Source of the DNA: Clostridiales bacterium | GTDB taxonomy: Bacteria > Bacillota > Clostridia > Oscillospirales > Acutalibacteraceae | Assembly: GCA_012517675.1 (NCBI GenBank) | Contig: JAAYUL010000095.1 | Location: 1-35,566 of the forward strand | Direction: 5' to 3' | DNA length: 35,566 bases | In this document: piece after piece, positions 1,016 through 24,122 of the stretch | Layout: every line of letters starts with the position of its first letter | Position numbering within the stretch: position 1 is the stretch's first letter | The notes under the pieces: model-generated | Told to the model about the DNA's origin: nothing | The model's input: the letters and a program-made list of their open reading frames with translations, nothing else | Databases searched by the model: none | Made by a program: the position numbers and the translations under genes

Positions 1016-1074
1016 TATTTGAATGATCTCTCTTTTCTCCCCGTTCGTTTCTTTTGTTTCGGGTCGAATTATGG

Positions 1075-1080
1075 TATAAT
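1075..1080 (+). promoter_or_regulatory. Extended -10 promoter element for FUSC-HAD gene
   Basis: TGGTATAAT upstream of ATG at 1114; weak -35. Confidence 0.5.
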
Positions 1081-1113
1081 AAAAAAAATTATTGTACGGA
1101 TAAGGGGTTCTGT

Positions 1114-2433
1114 ATGCCAAAAATCGGAATGAGGATCATAAAATCCGCGATCGCGGTATTTCTTTGCTTTGCTATTTATCTGATTCGGGGCGACGGAATC
1201 CCGTTTTATTCCGCTATCGCCGCCGTGCTCTGCATGCAGCCCGATGTTTCAAACAGCCGGAAAGTCGCTTTCAACCGAACGGTCGGCACTTTTATCGGCG
1301 GTTTTTTCGGTATGCTGTCCATGCTGATTGAAAAACAGTTTATTCCCCCGGAAATCCCCATTTTGAAGTATCTTCTGGTTTCCGCTTTGATCATCCCGCT
1401 GATTTATGTGACCGTGGCGCTGAAAAAGCCGACTTCCTCTTACATTACCTGCGTGGTTTTTATGAGCGTAACCGTTTCGCACGGGTTGGACGCCAATCCC
1501 TATTTATTCGCCCTCAACCGTATTGCGGATACATTGATCGGAATTTTTGTTTCTCTCGGTGTGAATGCCTTTCATATTCCGAAGCGCAAAAATTCCGGGC
1601 TTTTGTTTGTTTCGGACCTCTTCGGAACACTGATCAATTCCGGCGGGACTGTCAGCAGCTACTCCCGGGTCAAGCTGACGCACCTGATTCAGAAGGGCGC
1701 GATGATCACCGTGGCAAGCCGGCGTTCCGCAGCCTCCATTGTTCCTTTGCTTCAGGGAATCCCGTTCGAGCTGCCGATCATCACCCTGAACGGCGCGGCG
1801 CTTTACGACCTGAAATCCAAAACATACCTCTACTGTAAAACCATTCCCCGCTCCGCGGCAGCGGAAATCCTGGGCGTTTTTAAAACACACGGATTAAACT
1901 GCTTTACCCACACGATCATCAACGACATTCTGCACATCTATTACGGAACCTTTACCAACCCGGCGGAAGAGAAGCTGTACCATGAAAATAAATACCACCC
2001 GCTGAAAAACTATATTTGCAGTTCGGTGCCGGAGGAACGCGAAGCCGTATTTTTCCGCGCGGTGGATACGCTCGACATGGTGCGCCGTCTTTCCCGGGAA
2101 ATATTGCAGCTGAACTGCGGGGACAGCATCAGCACGGAATTTTACCCCTACAGTGCATACCCCGGCTACTATTTCCTTGAAATTTACAGCGCGGAGGCTT
2201 CCAAATCACACGCCGTTTTTGAGCTGCAGCGCAGGCTGGGCGCGGACCGTGTCGCCGCGTTCGGCGACGACAAAAGCGATATTTCCATGATTGCGGACGC
2301 GGATTACGGTTACGCCGTGGCAAACGCGGATGAAGCCATGACAGAGATCGCGCCGAACATCATCGGGAACCGGGACACCGATTCCGTTGTGAAAACAATG
2401 GAAAAACTGTTCCATTCCAAAAAACTGATCTGA
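1114..2433 (+). CDS. Fusion: N-terminal FUSC/aromatic-acid-exporter-like membrane domain plus C-terminal Cof-type HAD hydrolase domain
   Basis: N-term MRIIKSAIAVFLCFAIYLIRG...AVLCMQPDVSNSRKVAFNRTVGTFIGGFFG resembles FUSC/ArAE; C-term SDLFGTLINSGGTVS...TLNGAALYD...FGDDKSDISMIADADYGYAVANA is HAD-IIB. Start placed at 1114 (AAGGGG RBS); the ORF-track start at 1054 lies inside the promoter region. Confidence 0.8.
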   Translation: MPKIGMRIIKSAIAVFLCFAIYLIRGDGIPFYSAIAAVLCMQPDVSNSRKVAFNRTVGTFIGGFFGMLSMLIEKQFIPPEIPILKYLLVSALIIPLIYVTVALKKPTSSYITCVVFMSVTVSHGLDANPYLFALNRIADTLIGIFVSLGVNAFHIPKRKNSGLLFVSDLFGTLINSGGTVSSYSRVKLTHLIQKGAMITVASRRSAASIVPLLQGIPFELPIITLNGAALYDLKSKTYLYCKTIPRSAAAEILGVFKTHGLNCFTHTIINDILHIYYGTFTNPAEEKLYHENKYHPLKNYICSSVPEEREAVFFRAVDTLDMVRRLSREILQLNCGDSISTEFYPYSAYPGYYFLEIYSAEASKSHAVFELQRRLGADRVAAFGDDKSDISMIADADYGYAVANADEAMTEIAPNIIGNRDTDSVVKTMEKLFHSKKLI

Positions 2434-4311: not shown

Positions 4312-5722
4312 GTTTTTTAAACTGGTACAAAACGAATATATTAAAATTTTAAATCGAATCAGCACCTGGATCATTCTCGGCCTTGTCGTGCTGGCCGCTC
4401 TCGGCCTTTGCCTGGTTTCTGTTTTGGTGAAGAACGAAATGAACCGAAACAACGACACATATTCTCAGAGCACCTATACGGACGGAATGTACGACAGCGA
4501 AATCGCGTACCAGAAGGATTCCAAGCCGGAGGGCTATGAGCAAATGATCGAAGCGCTTGAGTTTCTGCGGGACAACAAAATCCCCTATGCGGACTGGAGG
4601 TACGCGGCCGCGAATGACATGGCGCAGGTCAAAACACAGCTCGCGTCGGCTTCCGCCTCCGGTCTGGACGACGCAACGGTAAAAGCGCTGACCAAAACGG
4701 CGCAGGATTATAAAAACGCAATCCTCGCCAAGGACTGGAAAGCCTATTATCAGATAAAAATTGATGTGATTCAGGAGGACGCGTCTCTTTCCAAAGAAGA
4801 AAAAGAAATGCAGGAGTGGCAGTACCAATACCGACTTGGGCATGACCTGAAACCCGGCTCCGACTGGAAATCCAACCTGATTACGGAAACCGCGACGCTG
4901 AAAGCACAGGTTGCCTCCATGCGGAAGGAGCAGGAAAGCGGTACCGCGCAGGATATGGAAAAGCTGAATCAAAACGTCGACAAGATTCAGGCCAATTTGT
5001 ACCGGATAGAACACAATATCCGCCTCGACATCGCCTCCGCCGGGCTGACGCACCCTCAGGGCACGCTGGGATTCTGGGATGTTTTCTCCACCTCTTCCAA
5101 AATGATCTCCGTCATCAGTCTGTTGATTATTGTCATTGCCGGCAGCTGCGTCGCCAGTGAATTTTCCTCCGGCACCATTAAATTTCTGCTGATCAACCCG
5201 GTCAAACGCGGCAAGATTCTGTTTTCCAAATACGTAATGGTCGTTTCGTTCGCCTATCTGATGCTGCTTTTCTTCTTTATTCTGAACGCTCTGTTCTGCA
5301 TGATGTTTTACGGCACCGGCGACCTCGGGATTCCATACCTGTCCGTCGCGGGCGGTACGGTCCACAGCACGCCCGGATTTGCGTACATTGCGGGGAAGTA
5401 TCTGCTGGCCAGCGTGGATATTCTGGTCATGGCAACGCTCGCATTCGCCATCTCTTCGCTGATTCGCAGCTCCGCGCTGGCAATCGGCGTGGGCGCGTTT
5501 GCCATGCTGGGCGGCAACACGCTGATTTTGATCCTGAAGCAGGCGCTCAATCTGGACTGGGCGCGCTACCTGATTTTCGCCAACACAAATCTTTCCTCCA
5601 TTATGGACGGCAGCTCCCTGTTCGCGCACCAATCGGTGCAGTTTGCATTGATTGTGGTCGCCGTTCACATGTTCGTTTTCCTTCTGACCGCATGGGACGG
5701 TTTTGTCCGGCGGGAGGTCTGA
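4304..5722 (+). CDS. ABC-2 type transporter permease
   Basis: N-term TM, large extracytoplasmic helical region, C-term multi-TM block with SCVASEFSSGTIKFLLINPVKRGKILFSKY; overlaps ATPase gene. Confidence 0.9.
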   Translation: MGKFFKLVQNEYIKILNRISTWIILGLVVLAALGLCLVSVLVKNEMNRNNDTYSQSTYTDGMYDSEIAYQKDSKPEGYEQMIEALEFLRDNKIPYADWRYAAANDMAQVKTQLASASASGLDDATVKALTKTAQDYKNAILAKDWKAYYQIKIDVIQEDASLSKEEKEMQEWQYQYRLGHDLKPGSDWKSNLITETATLKAQVASMRKEQESGTAQDMEKLNQNVDKIQANLYRIEHNIRLDIASAGLTHPQGTLGFWDVFSTSSKMISVISLLIIVIAGSCVASEFSSGTIKFLLINPVKRGKILFSKYVMVVSFAYLMLLFFFILNALFCMMFYGTGDLGIPYLSVAGGTVHSTPGFAYIAGKYLLASVDILVMATLAFAISSLIRSSALAIGVGAFAMLGGNTLILILKQALNLDWARYLIFANTNLSSIMDGSSLFAHQSVQFALIVVAVHMFVFLLTAWDGFVRREV

Positions 5723-5782: not shown

Positions 5783-5827
5783 AAGGGCCTGTTTGTCGAT
5801 CCGTGTTGGATCGACAAACAGGCCCTT
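5783..5827. terminator. Perfect 20-bp hairpin, intrinsic terminator
   Basis: AAGGGCCTGTTTGTCGATCC-GTGTT-GGATCGACAAACAGGCCCTT followed by CTTTT. Confidence 0.88.
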
Positions 5828-5946
5828 CTTTTCCGCCGCTGACATAAAATGGCCGTTACGACAGTATTAACGAATAATAAGCAATCAAAATTCGGTTAAA
5901 ATGTACATTTATTTTACACATACACATTATATGTTGATAAATTTGA

Positions 5947-5975
5947 TTGACAAATATTTACAATAAACATATAAT
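5947..5975 (+). promoter_or_regulatory. Consensus sigma-A promoter of the secreted-protein/ABC cassette
   Basis: TTGACA-17 nt-TATAAT, exact consensus. Confidence 0.85.
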
Positions 5976-6018
5976 ATTATTATAAGGCATTAAAAAATTC
6001 CTTTTTTTTTGCTATTTG

Positions 6019-6040
6019 CTATAAATAGTATGCGTGTTAG
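6019..6040 (+). repeat. Left arm of 22-bp inverted repeat flanking secreted-protein gene
   Basis: CTATAAATAGTATGCGTGTTAG; matches reverse complement of 6527-6548 at 20/22. Confidence 0.85.
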
Positions 6041-6059
6041 CAAAAAGGAGGTCAAAGAT

Positions 6060-6494
6060 ATGGCGAAAAGAGTATTCGCTTTCGTTTTCGCGGTAGCTCT
6101 ATTAACTGCAAATATTCTTCCAGCATTTGCAAAAACAGTTTATCAACAAAGAAATTTATACCGATCATGGTCGGATGATTATCAGAGAGTCCATATGTAT
6201 TATGACATCGGATCTACATGGCCTTATGATGATGTAAATGCCGAAACACATGTCACCGTATATGGTAATGGTGGCGGTGAATGGGGAGCCGCATATGTCA
6301 GAGTTACTTGCTCCGATGGAACATCACGCTCTGATTGGGAAACAAGCGTTTGCCAATATAATATTATGGCGACAAATACTGTTACGGTTCCTGGTCACGA
6401 TTATGCTTCTCAGGTGAATTATTATGGAAATGTACAAAAACCTATGGGATCTATACAAAACGTTTGGGATATTTATGTAACTTCTAGTGTTTAA
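6060..6494 (+). CDS. Small secreted protein of unknown family (candidate bacteriocin or extracellular factor)
   Basis: Start at 6060 behind AAAAAGGAGG; signal peptide MAKRVFAFVFAVALLTANILPAFA-K; mature part rich in Tyr/Trp/Gly with two Cys. Confidence 0.8.
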   Translation: MAKRVFAFVFAVALLTANILPAFAKTVYQQRNLYRSWSDDYQRVHMYYDIGSTWPYDDVNAETHVTVYGNGGGEWGAAYVRVTCSDGTSRSDWETSVCQYNIMATNTVTVPGHDYASQVNYYGNVQKPMGSIQNVWDIYVTSSV

Positions 6495-6526
6495 TTTCAT
6501 TACTTATTATTAAATAAAATGTAAAA

Positions 6527-6548
6527 CTAACACGCATATTATTTATTG
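6527..6548 (-). repeat. Right arm of 22-bp inverted repeat flanking secreted-protein gene
   Basis: CTAACACGCATATTATTTATTG; reverse complement CAATAAATAATATGCGTGTTAG. Confidence 0.85.
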
Positions 6549-6567: not shown

Positions 6568-7689
6568 ATGAAACAATGGAGCCTTGCTTTCGATAATATT
6601 AAAAATTTGTTCAGGAAAAACAAATTAATATTTATGTTGTTTTTTATCGGTATGACCGTATGCATTATTTGCTTCATTTATTTTTACGGCAATACGATGT
6701 CCTATAAGGTCAATGAAGCAAAAAACTTAGACTTGCTGCGAACTTACCGTATCACATTCTCTCCGGCAGAACAAACGGATCATCATATGCCGGCTTTTTT
6801 GGACGGCGAGCCTGTGGAGGATATCATCCTGCAAAGCGAAATTCCGTTTCAAAAAATTCAATATCAGGAAATGAATTCCATCTTTAAAGAAATGTACCAG
6901 AATGGTGCCGTTCCATTTTGTGCCTCAGTGAAAAACCGCACGACTCTGTATGCGGAGCAGGGAAGGGTAACCTTTCACCCCGATGAATTGGAAAACGCCT
7001 CACCCGTATTGATCGTCCCTTATTTATTTCTCAGCAGGCACAGCATCTCAAATCAAGATCACCCGTTACTGATTGACGGAACCCGTTTCCGGATGATTGG
7101 GGCATGCACGCTGAACACTTTTTATATTCCTGTCAATACCTTTTTCAAAATGGGTCTTTCCTCAACCGGAATGAAGGTTGTATTCAAAAACATTTTAAGC
7201 GTTCAGCAGGAACAAGCCTTTTACCGTAAGATCAACGCGCGGTTTCCCTCCGCTAAAATCACCGGACCGGAACCGTTTAAGGAATTTCAGAAAGAGAACG
7301 CTCCCACCGAACTTTTTATGGTCGGCATCGTATATGTAATGGCGTTAATCTCCTTTATGTTCCTTATGAAATATATGATTGACGAAAACCGCAGGGAACT
7401 GGTCATTTACTCCATTGCAGGCGCGTCGCAAAGACAAATATCAAGGCAGCTGATTCTCCAGATTACCCTCTTATCTGTTCTCGCAAGTATCGCTGCAATT
7501 GCGCTTTATGTTTGTTTTTACAACCTGTTATTTTCAAAAATAAACATTACCGAAAACATCACCTATAATTGGCGGGATTATGGAATCATTTTAATTTTCT
7601 CCGTCCTGCTTGCCGATCTCACCGCCTACCCGTTCCTCCTGAGCTGCCGGGCAAAATCGATCGTCCAGTTAAAAAACAAGTGTGAATAA
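6568..7689 (+). CDS. FtsX/MacB-like ABC half-permease
   Basis: N-term TM, about 200-aa extracytoplasmic domain, three C-term TMs (VGIVYVMALISFMFLMKYM; RQISRQLILQITLLSVLASIAAIALYV). Confidence 0.75.
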   Translation: MKQWSLAFDNIKNLFRKNKLIFMLFFIGMTVCIICFIYFYGNTMSYKVNEAKNLDLLRTYRITFSPAEQTDHHMPAFLDGEPVEDIILQSEIPFQKIQYQEMNSIFKEMYQNGAVPFCASVKNRTTLYAEQGRVTFHPDELENASPVLIVPYLFLSRHSISNQDHPLLIDGTRFRMIGACTLNTFYIPVNTFFKMGLSSTGMKVVFKNILSVQQEQAFYRKINARFPSAKITGPEPFKEFQKENAPTELFMVGIVYVMALISFMFLMKYMIDENRRELVIYSIAGASQRQISRQLILQITLLSVLASIAAIALYVCFYNLLFSKINITENITYNWRDYGIILIFSVLLADLTAYPFLLSCRAKSIVQLKNKCE

Positions 7690-7701: not shown

Positions 7702-8931
7702 ATGAAGCATCTTAAATTTATTTTCAGTTTATACAGCAAAAACTGGCTCTCTGCAATCCTTTTGATTTTTGTCACCTCTGTTTCCCTGTTTACGCTGACG
7801 AACGCAATCGGCAAATACCAGTTTTATCATTATTCTCTGGATTTGTTTTCGTCAACAAAATTAAACGACCATGATGTGTATTTCATGCCGTTTGTATCGG
7901 AAGATCAAAGGAAAGACCCCGAAAGTAACTATTTGAGCATGGAGCAGGCCACGTCAAATGCGGTTCAGCAGATTAAAAACACAGCGGGAGTAGAAGCAGT
8001 CATTCAAAGCCCCTTCCTTATTTCGGGAGAATATAAGGGCAATTCCCTATTAATGGCTATTTACGACCGGGAATTGAACGAAAAATTTTCGCTGCCGCTG
8101 GAAACCGGAACCTGGTTTCGCAATACAGCCAAAACAAAAAACGCAGAAGCAATCGCGGGCGGTTACTCCTTTCAGAACGTACAAGTCGGTTCTGCCATTC
8201 ATGTGGAATATAAAAAAGGGAACGGAATAACAAAAGAAATTGATCTGAAAATCGTGGGCAAACTGAAGGATCCGTCCGCTTTCCCAAATTTTTCTTTGAG
8301 CGGTACAACGATTTTTGCTGACGATATCTGGAAATGGCAGGATGTTCTGATCCTCAATCAGAAAAATCTGCCGGATGATGTCGGAAAGGACGCCCAAGTA
8401 TCCGGAAGTAATTTTTTTATTTCCATCCGCAGCCAAGCAAATTATGACGCTGCGGTTCGGAGCATTGAACAATTCGGAACGGTAAAACCCTATCGCAAAA
8501 TTCTGAGCGATTCCAGTATCAACGCAGAAAACAAAATAAGGCAAAATCTTCCGATTCCGCTTTTTTTCCTTTTCATTTCGAGCATGACGCAGCTAAGCGT
8601 TTCCGTCCTTTTTGTCAACAAAAAGATCCCGGAATTCGGGATCTATTATTTATACGGCTGCACCAAATTCCGATATTTCTGCTCTTTAATGATTTGCATT
8701 ACGGCGCTCGCACTGGTTTCCGTTCTGATCAATTTTGTTATGGTGGTCGAATGTCCGGCGCTGCTGCATTATGGAATTTTAAATCTGGGTCATGTGGTTT
8801 TCGATTGCAGACAGATTTTTTCTTTTGTTCTGCCTTATGAAATCATCAGCCTGCTCTGTTCCATCCTTTTCTGCTTCAGTATATTCCGAAAAAAAACTCC
8901 CATTGAACTGTACAGGAGGCTCGAATCATGA
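7702..8931 (+). CDS. FtsX/MacB-like ABC half-permease
   Basis: Same 1+3 TM layout; 4-nt overlap with ATPase start (8928). Confidence 0.75.
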   Translation: MKHLKFIFSLYSKNWLSAILLIFVTSVSLFTLTNAIGKYQFYHYSLDLFSSTKLNDHDVYFMPFVSEDQRKDPESNYLSMEQATSNAVQQIKNTAGVEAVIQSPFLISGEYKGNSLLMAIYDRELNEKFSLPLETGTWFRNTAKTKNAEAIAGGYSFQNVQVGSAIHVEYKKGNGITKEIDLKIVGKLKDPSAFPNFSLSGTTIFADDIWKWQDVLILNQKNLPDDVGKDAQVSGSNFFISIRSQANYDAAVRSIEQFGTVKPYRKILSDSSINAENKIRQNLPIPLFFLFISSMTQLSVSVLFVNKKIPEFGIYYLYGCTKFRYFCSLMICITALALVSVLINFVMVVECPALLHYGILNLGHVVFDCRQIFSFVLPYEIISLLCSILFCFSIFRKKTPIELYRRLES

Positions 8932-9590
8932 TCACATTGGAACATATCTACAAAATCTATTATTCGCACGGGGTGGAGTTCCAGGCGTTGAAGGACGTCT
9001 CCCTGACCATTTCCGACGGGGATTTTATTGCGATTCAGGGAAAATCCGGGGCGGGAAAATCGACTTTGTTACATATCCTTGGAGGTATCGACGATTATGA
9101 TACGGGTACGTACCGGTTTAACGACACGAATGTCGCGGATTTCACCAACCATCAGCTGGCAAAATTGCGAAACAGCGAAATTGGTTTTGTTCTTCAGGAT
9201 TTTTCCCTGATCAATCACAAGTCCGTCTTGTTCAACGCCATGCTTCCACTCTATTTTAACAAAACTCCCGCAAAAGACATGAAACCAATGGCGCTGAACG
9301 CGCTCCGATTGGCGAGGATTGAAGATCAGGCAAAAAAACCGGCCAACCAGCTTTCCGGCGGCCAGCGGCAAAGGGTTGCAATTGCCCGCGCAATTATCAA
9401 TAATCCCAGTGTGATTTTGGCGGACGAGCCAACCGGTTCTCTGGATACGGAAACCTCGGCCCAAATTATGGACCTGCTGATGTCCCTAAACAAACAGGGA
9501 ATCACTTTAGTTGTCGTCACGCATGATAACACCGTCGCCGGTTATGCTCATAGAATCATCACGCTGCGGGACGGGGAAATCCTATCATAA
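8928..9590 (+). CDS. ABC transporter ATP-binding protein, LolD/MacB type
   Basis: [46 protein letters not shown]. Confidence 0.96.
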
Positions 9591-23831: not shown

Positions 23832-24122
23832 AAAAAGCCCCTGCCCCTGAAAAACAGGGACAAGAGCATTTGTGACTCCTGCGGTACCACCCAAATTGGC
23901 GAAATTTCGCCCGCTTGTTCCATACACAAAACATGTATGCTTCCTTGGTAACGGGTGAAGCTCCCGTCAAAAGCTACTCTGCCGTCGGCATTTCGCTCCG
24001 CCCTCATAAGTCCATTCAGCCTGCCGGATTCCGCCGCAATTCCACCGCCTGCGGCTCTCTTCGAAAACCCTTCCGCCTGCCTACTACTCTTAATCATCGG
24101 TTTCAGGTGCCTATCAACTTTT
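23832..24122 (-). ncRNA. T-box leader with UGG (Trp) specifier
   Basis: Minus strand GGGTGGTACCGC (23881-23892), terminator stem 23837-23867 with T-run, Stem I with GAA-UGG-AC specifier at 24012-24014. Confidence 0.93.

What the first reader, a model, noticed from the sequence alone, without database searches (positions are those of the whole stretch)
6019..6548. Near-perfect 22-bp inverted repeats bracket the secreted-protein gene
Seen: 6019-6040 CTATAAATAGTATGCGTGTTAG and 6527-6548, reverse complement CAATAAATAATATGCGTGTTAG (20/22, with an uninterrupted 12-bp match including TATGCGTGTTAG). The promoter at 5947-5975 lies outside the repeats, and the left arm ends one base before the RBS. Inversion would therefore turn the CDS antisense while keeping the promoter pointing at the ABC genes. 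Alternatives: termini for cassette exchange, a long-range mRNA stem that loops out the CDS, or paired regulator sites.
Basis: partly seen in the sequence, partly recalled or inferred. Interest (0 to 1): 0.75.

Follow-up and report, generated by a model that had tools for sequence, protein, structure and literature searches.

The report
Self-unmasking mRNA around secreted-protein gene
The two mirror-image sequences around a bacterium's small secreted-protein gene most likely pair in the messenger RNA, closing a loop around the gene and freeing a ribosome-binding site that the unfinished message keeps hidden, so translation may wait until the gene has been fully copied.

Summary
The inverted repeat is real: 6021-6040 / 6527-6546 match at 19 of 20 positions, and the odd position is a G·U pair in RNA, so the RNA stem is 20/20. 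It is the only repeat of its kind in the window and never appeared in 400 shuffles. DNA inversion is poorly supported. The best reading is an RNA stem. The left arm lies in the 5' leader of a 144-aa secreted protein. The right arm lies in the gap before the FtsX-like/ABC genes of the same operon.

Two tests support the RNA reading. First, nine of ten distant sister operons with a gap of at least 50 nt carry a strong local hairpin in that same gap. The window has none there; its right arm sits in that place and pairs with the 5' leader instead. Second, the leader alone is predicted to hide the protein's Shine-Dalgarno (SD) site (unpaired 0.03; 0.7% of shuffles). Once the right arm is transcribed, the long stem forms (0.98) and breaks the hiding hairpin (SD unpaired 0.48).

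This resembles icaR 5'-3' UTR pairing and hok/AapA/timP toxin mRNA folding, but the long-range pairing here would open the start site. No close relative carries these arms, so conservation cannot be tested. All folding is predicted.

The parts
5947..5975 (+). Sigma-70-type promoter TTGACA-N17-TATAAT; predicted transcript start about 5982
   Evidence: 12/12 consensus match; start site inferred, not mapped
6000..6014 (+). U-rich anti-SD segment CCTTTTTTTTTGCTA of the 5' leader; predicted to pair with 6038-6051 and mask the SD
   Evidence: Partition function: SD unpaired 0.03 in leader alone; masking is lost if the transcript starts at 6008 (0.76)
6019..6040 (+). Left arm of the long-range stem, in the 5' leader
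6044..6051 (+). Shine-Dalgarno AAAGGAGG of the secreted-protein gene
   Evidence: sequence
6060..6494 (+). pep: 144-aa protein with N-terminal signal segment; predicted all-beta sandwich (pLDDT 83); bacteriocin-like by context only
   Evidence: no Pfam/NCBIfam family over cut-off
6527..6548 (+). Right arm of the long-range stem, in the pep-permA gap; same place as the local hairpin of related operons
6568..7689 (+). permA: FtsX-like permease
   Evidence: PF02687 E 1.9e-13
7702..8931 (+). permB: second membrane protein of the operon (about 25-30% identical copies in related operons)
8928..9590 (+). ABC ATPase; best NCBIfam hit TIGR03608 (lactococcin 972 group), below its cut-off

Best explanation
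The arms act in the mRNA. Shown by the sequence: two arms able to form a 20-bp uninterrupted RNA stem bracket the pep coding region inside one predicted transcript. Predicted by folding: while pep is being transcribed, a U-rich stretch of the 5' leader (6000-6014) pairs with the SD (6038-6051) and hides it. Once RNA polymerase has passed 6546, the right arm invades, the long-range stem 6021-6040/6527-6546 forms, the masking hairpin is lost and the SD opens. Inferred: (i) pep translation is delayed until its whole message exists; (ii) the stem is an RNase III / Mini-III target or a clamp that separates a pep message from the ABC-gene message and, once cut, removes the masking leader for good; (iii) it takes over the job of the local hairpin that sister operons have in the same gap, which may set the pep to transporter ratio.
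For: Repeat beyond chance. The full-transcript minimum-energy fold contains the stem, z = -2.9 against shuffles; stem duplex -26 kcal/mol. The only mismatch in the 20-bp core is a G-U pair. Truncation series: SD unpaired 0.02-0.04 up to 6526, then 0.48 at 6546 with stem probability 0.98. In silico complementing of the right arm alone restores masking (0.06), and complementing both arms restores stem (0.93) and opening (0.48). Holds from 25 to 55 C and for transcript starts 5978-5998. SD masking by the leader alone is rare (0.7-0.8% of shuffled leaders) and is by far the strongest among 14 operons (next 0.19). Nine of ten sister operons with a gap of at least 50 nt have a strong hairpin in the gap (z -2.7 to -6.1); the window has none (z -0.4) but pairs the same place with its leader. 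The genome encodes RNase III and Mini-III type proteins. Experimental precedent for the separate steps in other mRNAs: icaR (PMC3868564), aapA3 (PMC6733600), timP (PMC11228461), cspA (PMC3386247).
Against: No relative shares these arms, so there is no covariation test and this is one sequence. The only other hairpin-less relative, L095, shows that a gap can lack a hairpin, though its pep reading frame looks broken. In the opened state the GGAGG core is still largely paired with 6222-6225 (unpaired 0.19), so opening is partial. Translating ribosomes and folding kinetics over a 486-nt loop are not modelled. The switch reading was formed after looking at the folds. The transcript start and the single transcript are predicted, not measured.
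Confidence: 0.55

Rival explanations
1. Plain processing or stability stem: the arms form a long-range RNA stem that is cut or protects message ends and so separates pep from the ABC genes, with no meaningful SD switch; the leader hairpin is a by-product of an A/U-rich leader.
For: Sister operons keep a gap hairpin but do not mask the SD in the leader; RNase III and Mini-III present; pre-rRNA-like geometry (arms flanking the part to be released; from general knowledge).
Against: Leader masking is rare in shuffles (0.7%), uses a well-placed U/C tract, and is exclusive with the stem.
Confidence: 0.25
2. Paired operator sites: a DNA-binding regulator binds both arms, looping the DNA or blocking transcription.
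For: Two near-identical 20-bp sites flank the gene; the left site lies just downstream of the promoter.
Against: No third copy in the genome above control, the arms are not themselves symmetric, the sites are in opposite orientation 486 bp apart with one in a gap without a promoter match, and no regulator was recognised by Pfam next to the operon.
Confidence: 0.08
3. Invertible or exchangeable DNA cassette: the arms are recombination sites and the pep segment flips or is swapped.
For: Repeat length is in the range of known invertible elements (general knowledge); the operon is absent from the other ten genomes of the genus and is AT-rich, so it was probably acquired.
Against: No recombinase recognised in the window; only two large serine recombinases found on other contigs; promoter outside the arms; no ORF of 60 aa or more in the flipped sense; arm core absent from other loci; the AT-rich block extends well beyond the arms.
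Confidence: 0.04
4. Chance or neutral repeat with no role.
For: A single species; no conservation test possible; long inverted repeats with large loops do occur in 196 kb of related loci (three scoring 19 or more).
Against: 0 of 400 shuffles, position exactly where relatives place a stem, and interplay with the SD mask.
Confidence: 0.08

Closest known systems
icaR 5'-3' UTR pairing in Staphylococcus aureus (PMC3868564)
   Same: Long-range pairing between 5' leader and a region downstream of the CDS on one mRNA, next to the SD; RNase III substrate there; authors also propose a leader fold that is displaced by the 3' part.
   Different: There the 3' motif covers the SD and stops translation; here the stem stops 3 nt short of the SD and is predicted to open it. 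Here the downstream arm is in a gap inside an operon, not a 3' UTR.
hok / AapA3 type I toxin mRNAs with metastable hairpins and 5'-3' long-distance interaction (PMC6733600)
   Same: In aapA3, SD-masking hairpins form by CU-rich elements while transcription is under way and are replaced by a long-distance 5'-3' interaction in the finished message.
   Different: There the long-distance fold is translationally inert and needs 3' trimming; here it is predicted to be the open form. No antisense antitoxin RNA was identified here, and the protein is a 144-aa secreted beta protein, not a short membrane toxin.
timP structural activation (PMC11228461)
   Same: Nascent mRNA inactive, activated by an intramolecular structural change without cleavage.
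   Different: timP uses a pseudoknot and an antisense RNA; here a stem across the whole CDS.
cspA mRNA maturation by RNase III in S. aureus (PMC3386247)
   Same: Cutting a 5' double-stranded part removes a leader and raises SD access and translation.
   Different: Local 5' hairpin rather than a stem bracketing the CDS; here cutting is only inferred.
Lactococcin 972-type three-gene operons, e.g. scbABC (PMC11796350)
   Same: Secreted protein gene followed by membrane and ABC ATPase genes; ATPase best matches TIGR03608.
   Different: Two permease genes instead of one, 144-aa protein without a match to that family, ATPase below the TIGR03608 cut-off.

Membership tests
Invertible DNA element (phase-variable) | Inverted repeats flanking the switched segment | tested here: met
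Invertible DNA element (phase-variable) | Site-specific recombinase nearby | tested here: not met
   none recognised by Pfam among the window ORFs scanned; two large serine recombinases on other contigs; tyrosine recombinases elsewhere in the genome not searched
Invertible DNA element (phase-variable) | Both orientations found | not testable with these tools
   one assembly without reads
5'-3' long-range mRNA pairing (icaR/hok-like) | Complementary arms in 5' leader and downstream of the CDS on one transcript | tested here: met
   sequence and fold; single transcript inferred from promoter and lack of a terminator match in the gap
5'-3' long-range mRNA pairing (icaR/hok-like) | Long-range arm pairs over the SD and blocks translation | tested here: not met
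   stem ends at 6040, SD 6044-6051; predicted opening instead
5'-3' long-range mRNA pairing (icaR/hok-like) | Pairing and effect shown by probing and mutants | not testable with these tools
   needs RNA work
Type I toxin-antitoxin | Antisense RNA antitoxin to the toxin mRNA | tested here: inconclusive
   only a consensus promoter scan; no Rfam match in the operon
Lactococcin 972-type bacteriocin operon | Bacteriocin matches the family model | tested here: not met
   no such Pfam/NCBIfam match; fold search names no bacteriocin in the 50 rows shown
Lactococcin 972-type bacteriocin operon | ABC ATPase of TIGR03608 | tested here: inconclusive
   best hit but 213 bits against cut-off 255

The most novel reading that the evidence does not exclude
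A self-timing mRNA: the SD of a secreted, possibly toxic protein is hidden by its own leader and is opened only when a 20-nt arm beyond the stop codon has been transcribed, so the message checks its own completeness before translation, uncoupling transcription and translation without antisense RNA.
Probability: 0.3. Interest if true: 0.75.

Novelty: new variant of a known kind. Interest (0 to 1): 0.5.

Why it matters
Bacteria usually start translating before a message is finished. The exceptions read here (hok, aapA3, timP) are small toxins. A leader that stays shut until an arm beyond the coding region appears would be a simple cis-acting way to delay translation, here in an operon for a secreted beta protein with its own ABC genes. 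The comparison also shows a group of pep-permA-permB-ATPase operons, without a family model for pep, with a gap hairpin in most members. That is a tractable set for testing how such operons set the ratio of secreted product to transporter.

Tried and rejected
Close relatives for a covariation test: none in the genus, in genome contigs or in about 1,400 genomes. L053 showed a possible long-range pair but has no pep gene upstream, so it was dropped as chance. Cross-pairing of leaders with gaps of other operons is not informative on its own, because GC-rich hairpins pair with many leaders; in that test the window's own gap tied for best partner of its leader. Comparison with the nearest genus member that has the polymerase IV gene (G304) gave no shared gene upstream, and the upstream ABC-2 gene is also absent from the genus, so the acquired block's left edge is undefined. 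The pep fold search gave only loose beta-sandwich matches, so a bacteriocin fold could not be confirmed. Two literature searches for gap hairpins in bacteriocin operons found no direct precedent in the library.

Full report
Observation. The two arms are present at the stated places. The core is 6021-6040 against 6527-6546, 19/20 as DNA. The one odd position (G6028 opposite T6539) is a G-U pair in RNA, so the stem is unbroken over 20 pairs at RNA level. It is the only inverted repeat of its score with a 100-1000 bp loop in the window and was never matched in 400 dinucleotide shuffles of the region (best 14 against 17). The 12-bp core occurs nowhere else in the assembly.

Setting. A consensus promoter (5947-5975) precedes a four-gene operon: pep (6060-6494, a 144-aa protein with a signal segment), permA (6568-7689, FtsX-like), permB (7702-8931) and an ABC ATPase (8928-9590) whose best NCBIfam hit is the lactococcin 972 group, below cut-off. 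The upstream operon ends at 5722 with a strong terminator hairpin at 5783-5827. The left arm is in the 5' leader, the right arm in the 73-nt gap between pep and permA. The operon is AT-rich (about 37-49% GC against mostly 52-60% around) and absent from the ten other genomes of the genus searched, so it looks acquired.

Relatives. Searches with pep and permA found the same gene order in other members of the window's family and order (for example Caproicibacter fermentans, L065/L014), at about 16-34% protein identity. These pep proteins form a diverse family without a Pfam model, predicted as an all-beta sandwich (pLDDT 83) without a specific structural match.

Comparative anatomy. Of ten relatives with a pep-permA gap of at least 50 nt, nine have a strong local hairpin in that gap (z from -2.7 to -6.1 against dinucleotide shuffles). 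The tenth, L095, has none, and its pep reading frame appears broken. Two of the nine (L016, L056) come from one genome and share their hairpin, so they are not independent. The window's gap folds no better than shuffles (z -0.4), but its right arm sits at the hairpin's place and pairs with the 5' leader: about 21 expected leader-gap pairs, against 12 in L014 (which also has the local hairpin) and under 5 in the rest. So the window has a stem at the usual place, with its second strand moved to the other side of the coding region. That the one replaces the other is inference.

The leader. Folding the leader alone hides the SD: 6000-6014 (CCUUUUUUUUUGCUA) pairs with 6038-6051 and leaves the SD unpaired at 0.03. 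Only 0.7-0.8% of shuffled leaders do as well, and none of the other 13 leaders does (lowest 0.19). The masking state persists for every 3' end tested up to 6526. When the right arm is present, the stem forms at 0.98 and the SD opens to 0.48. In silico complementing of the right arm restores masking, and complementing both arms restores opening. The result is stable from 25 to 55 C, and leader masking holds for transcript starts from 5978 to 5998. The opening is partial: GGAGG still pairs with 6222-6225 in the model, a contact that lies in coding sequence. RNAs cut inside the stem keep the open state.

Mechanism. I take the arms to work in the RNA (about 0.8 for RNA-level function of some kind; 0.55 for the combined model given as best explanation; 0.3 for the strict completeness-check form). 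RNase III and Mini-III type proteins are encoded in the genome, and a 20-bp stem is a plausible substrate, but cutting is inferred. Published precedents: icaR leader-3' UTR pairing (PMC3868564), aapA3 metastable SD-masking hairpins replaced by a long-distance interaction (PMC6733600), timP structural activation (PMC11228461) and cspA leader removal by RNase III (PMC3386247). The difference is direction: in icaR and aapA3 the long-distance form is closed, here it is predicted to be open.

Rivals. Inversion lacks a nearby recombinase, a promoter inside the arms and an ORF in the flipped sense. Paired operators lack further copies and symmetry. A plain processing stem without a switch remains a serious rival. 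Chance is unlikely by shuffles but cannot be fully excluded because no close relative is held.

Noticed in passing
L011, L013, L014, L016, L046-L051, L056, L093, L094: A group of pep-permA-permB-ATPase operons in Clostridia with a very diverse secreted beta protein (no Pfam model) and, in nine members, a strong hairpin between pep and permA.
   Followed up: partly
window 5783-5827: Perfect 20-bp inverted repeat with 5-nt loop after the upstream ABC operon, a strong terminator.
   Followed up: no
window 5926-5953, minus strand: An 11/12 promoter match on the minus strand overlaps the pep promoter's -35; it would transcribe leftwards into the terminator hairpin.
   Followed up: no
window 23853-24106, minus strand: T-box leader (RF00230) upstream of an ABC substrate-binding protein and permease operon.
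   Followed up: no
window 1054-2433: One reading frame joins an aromatic-acid-exporter-like (FUSC) N-terminal part to a Cof-type HAD hydrolase.
   Followed up: no
L095 860-1300: pep gene seems to have lost frame with its start region in a relative that also lacks the gap hairpin.
   Followed up: partly
L056 and L051: Two permA-like genes in tandem, suggesting duplication of permease units in some pep operons.
   Followed up: no
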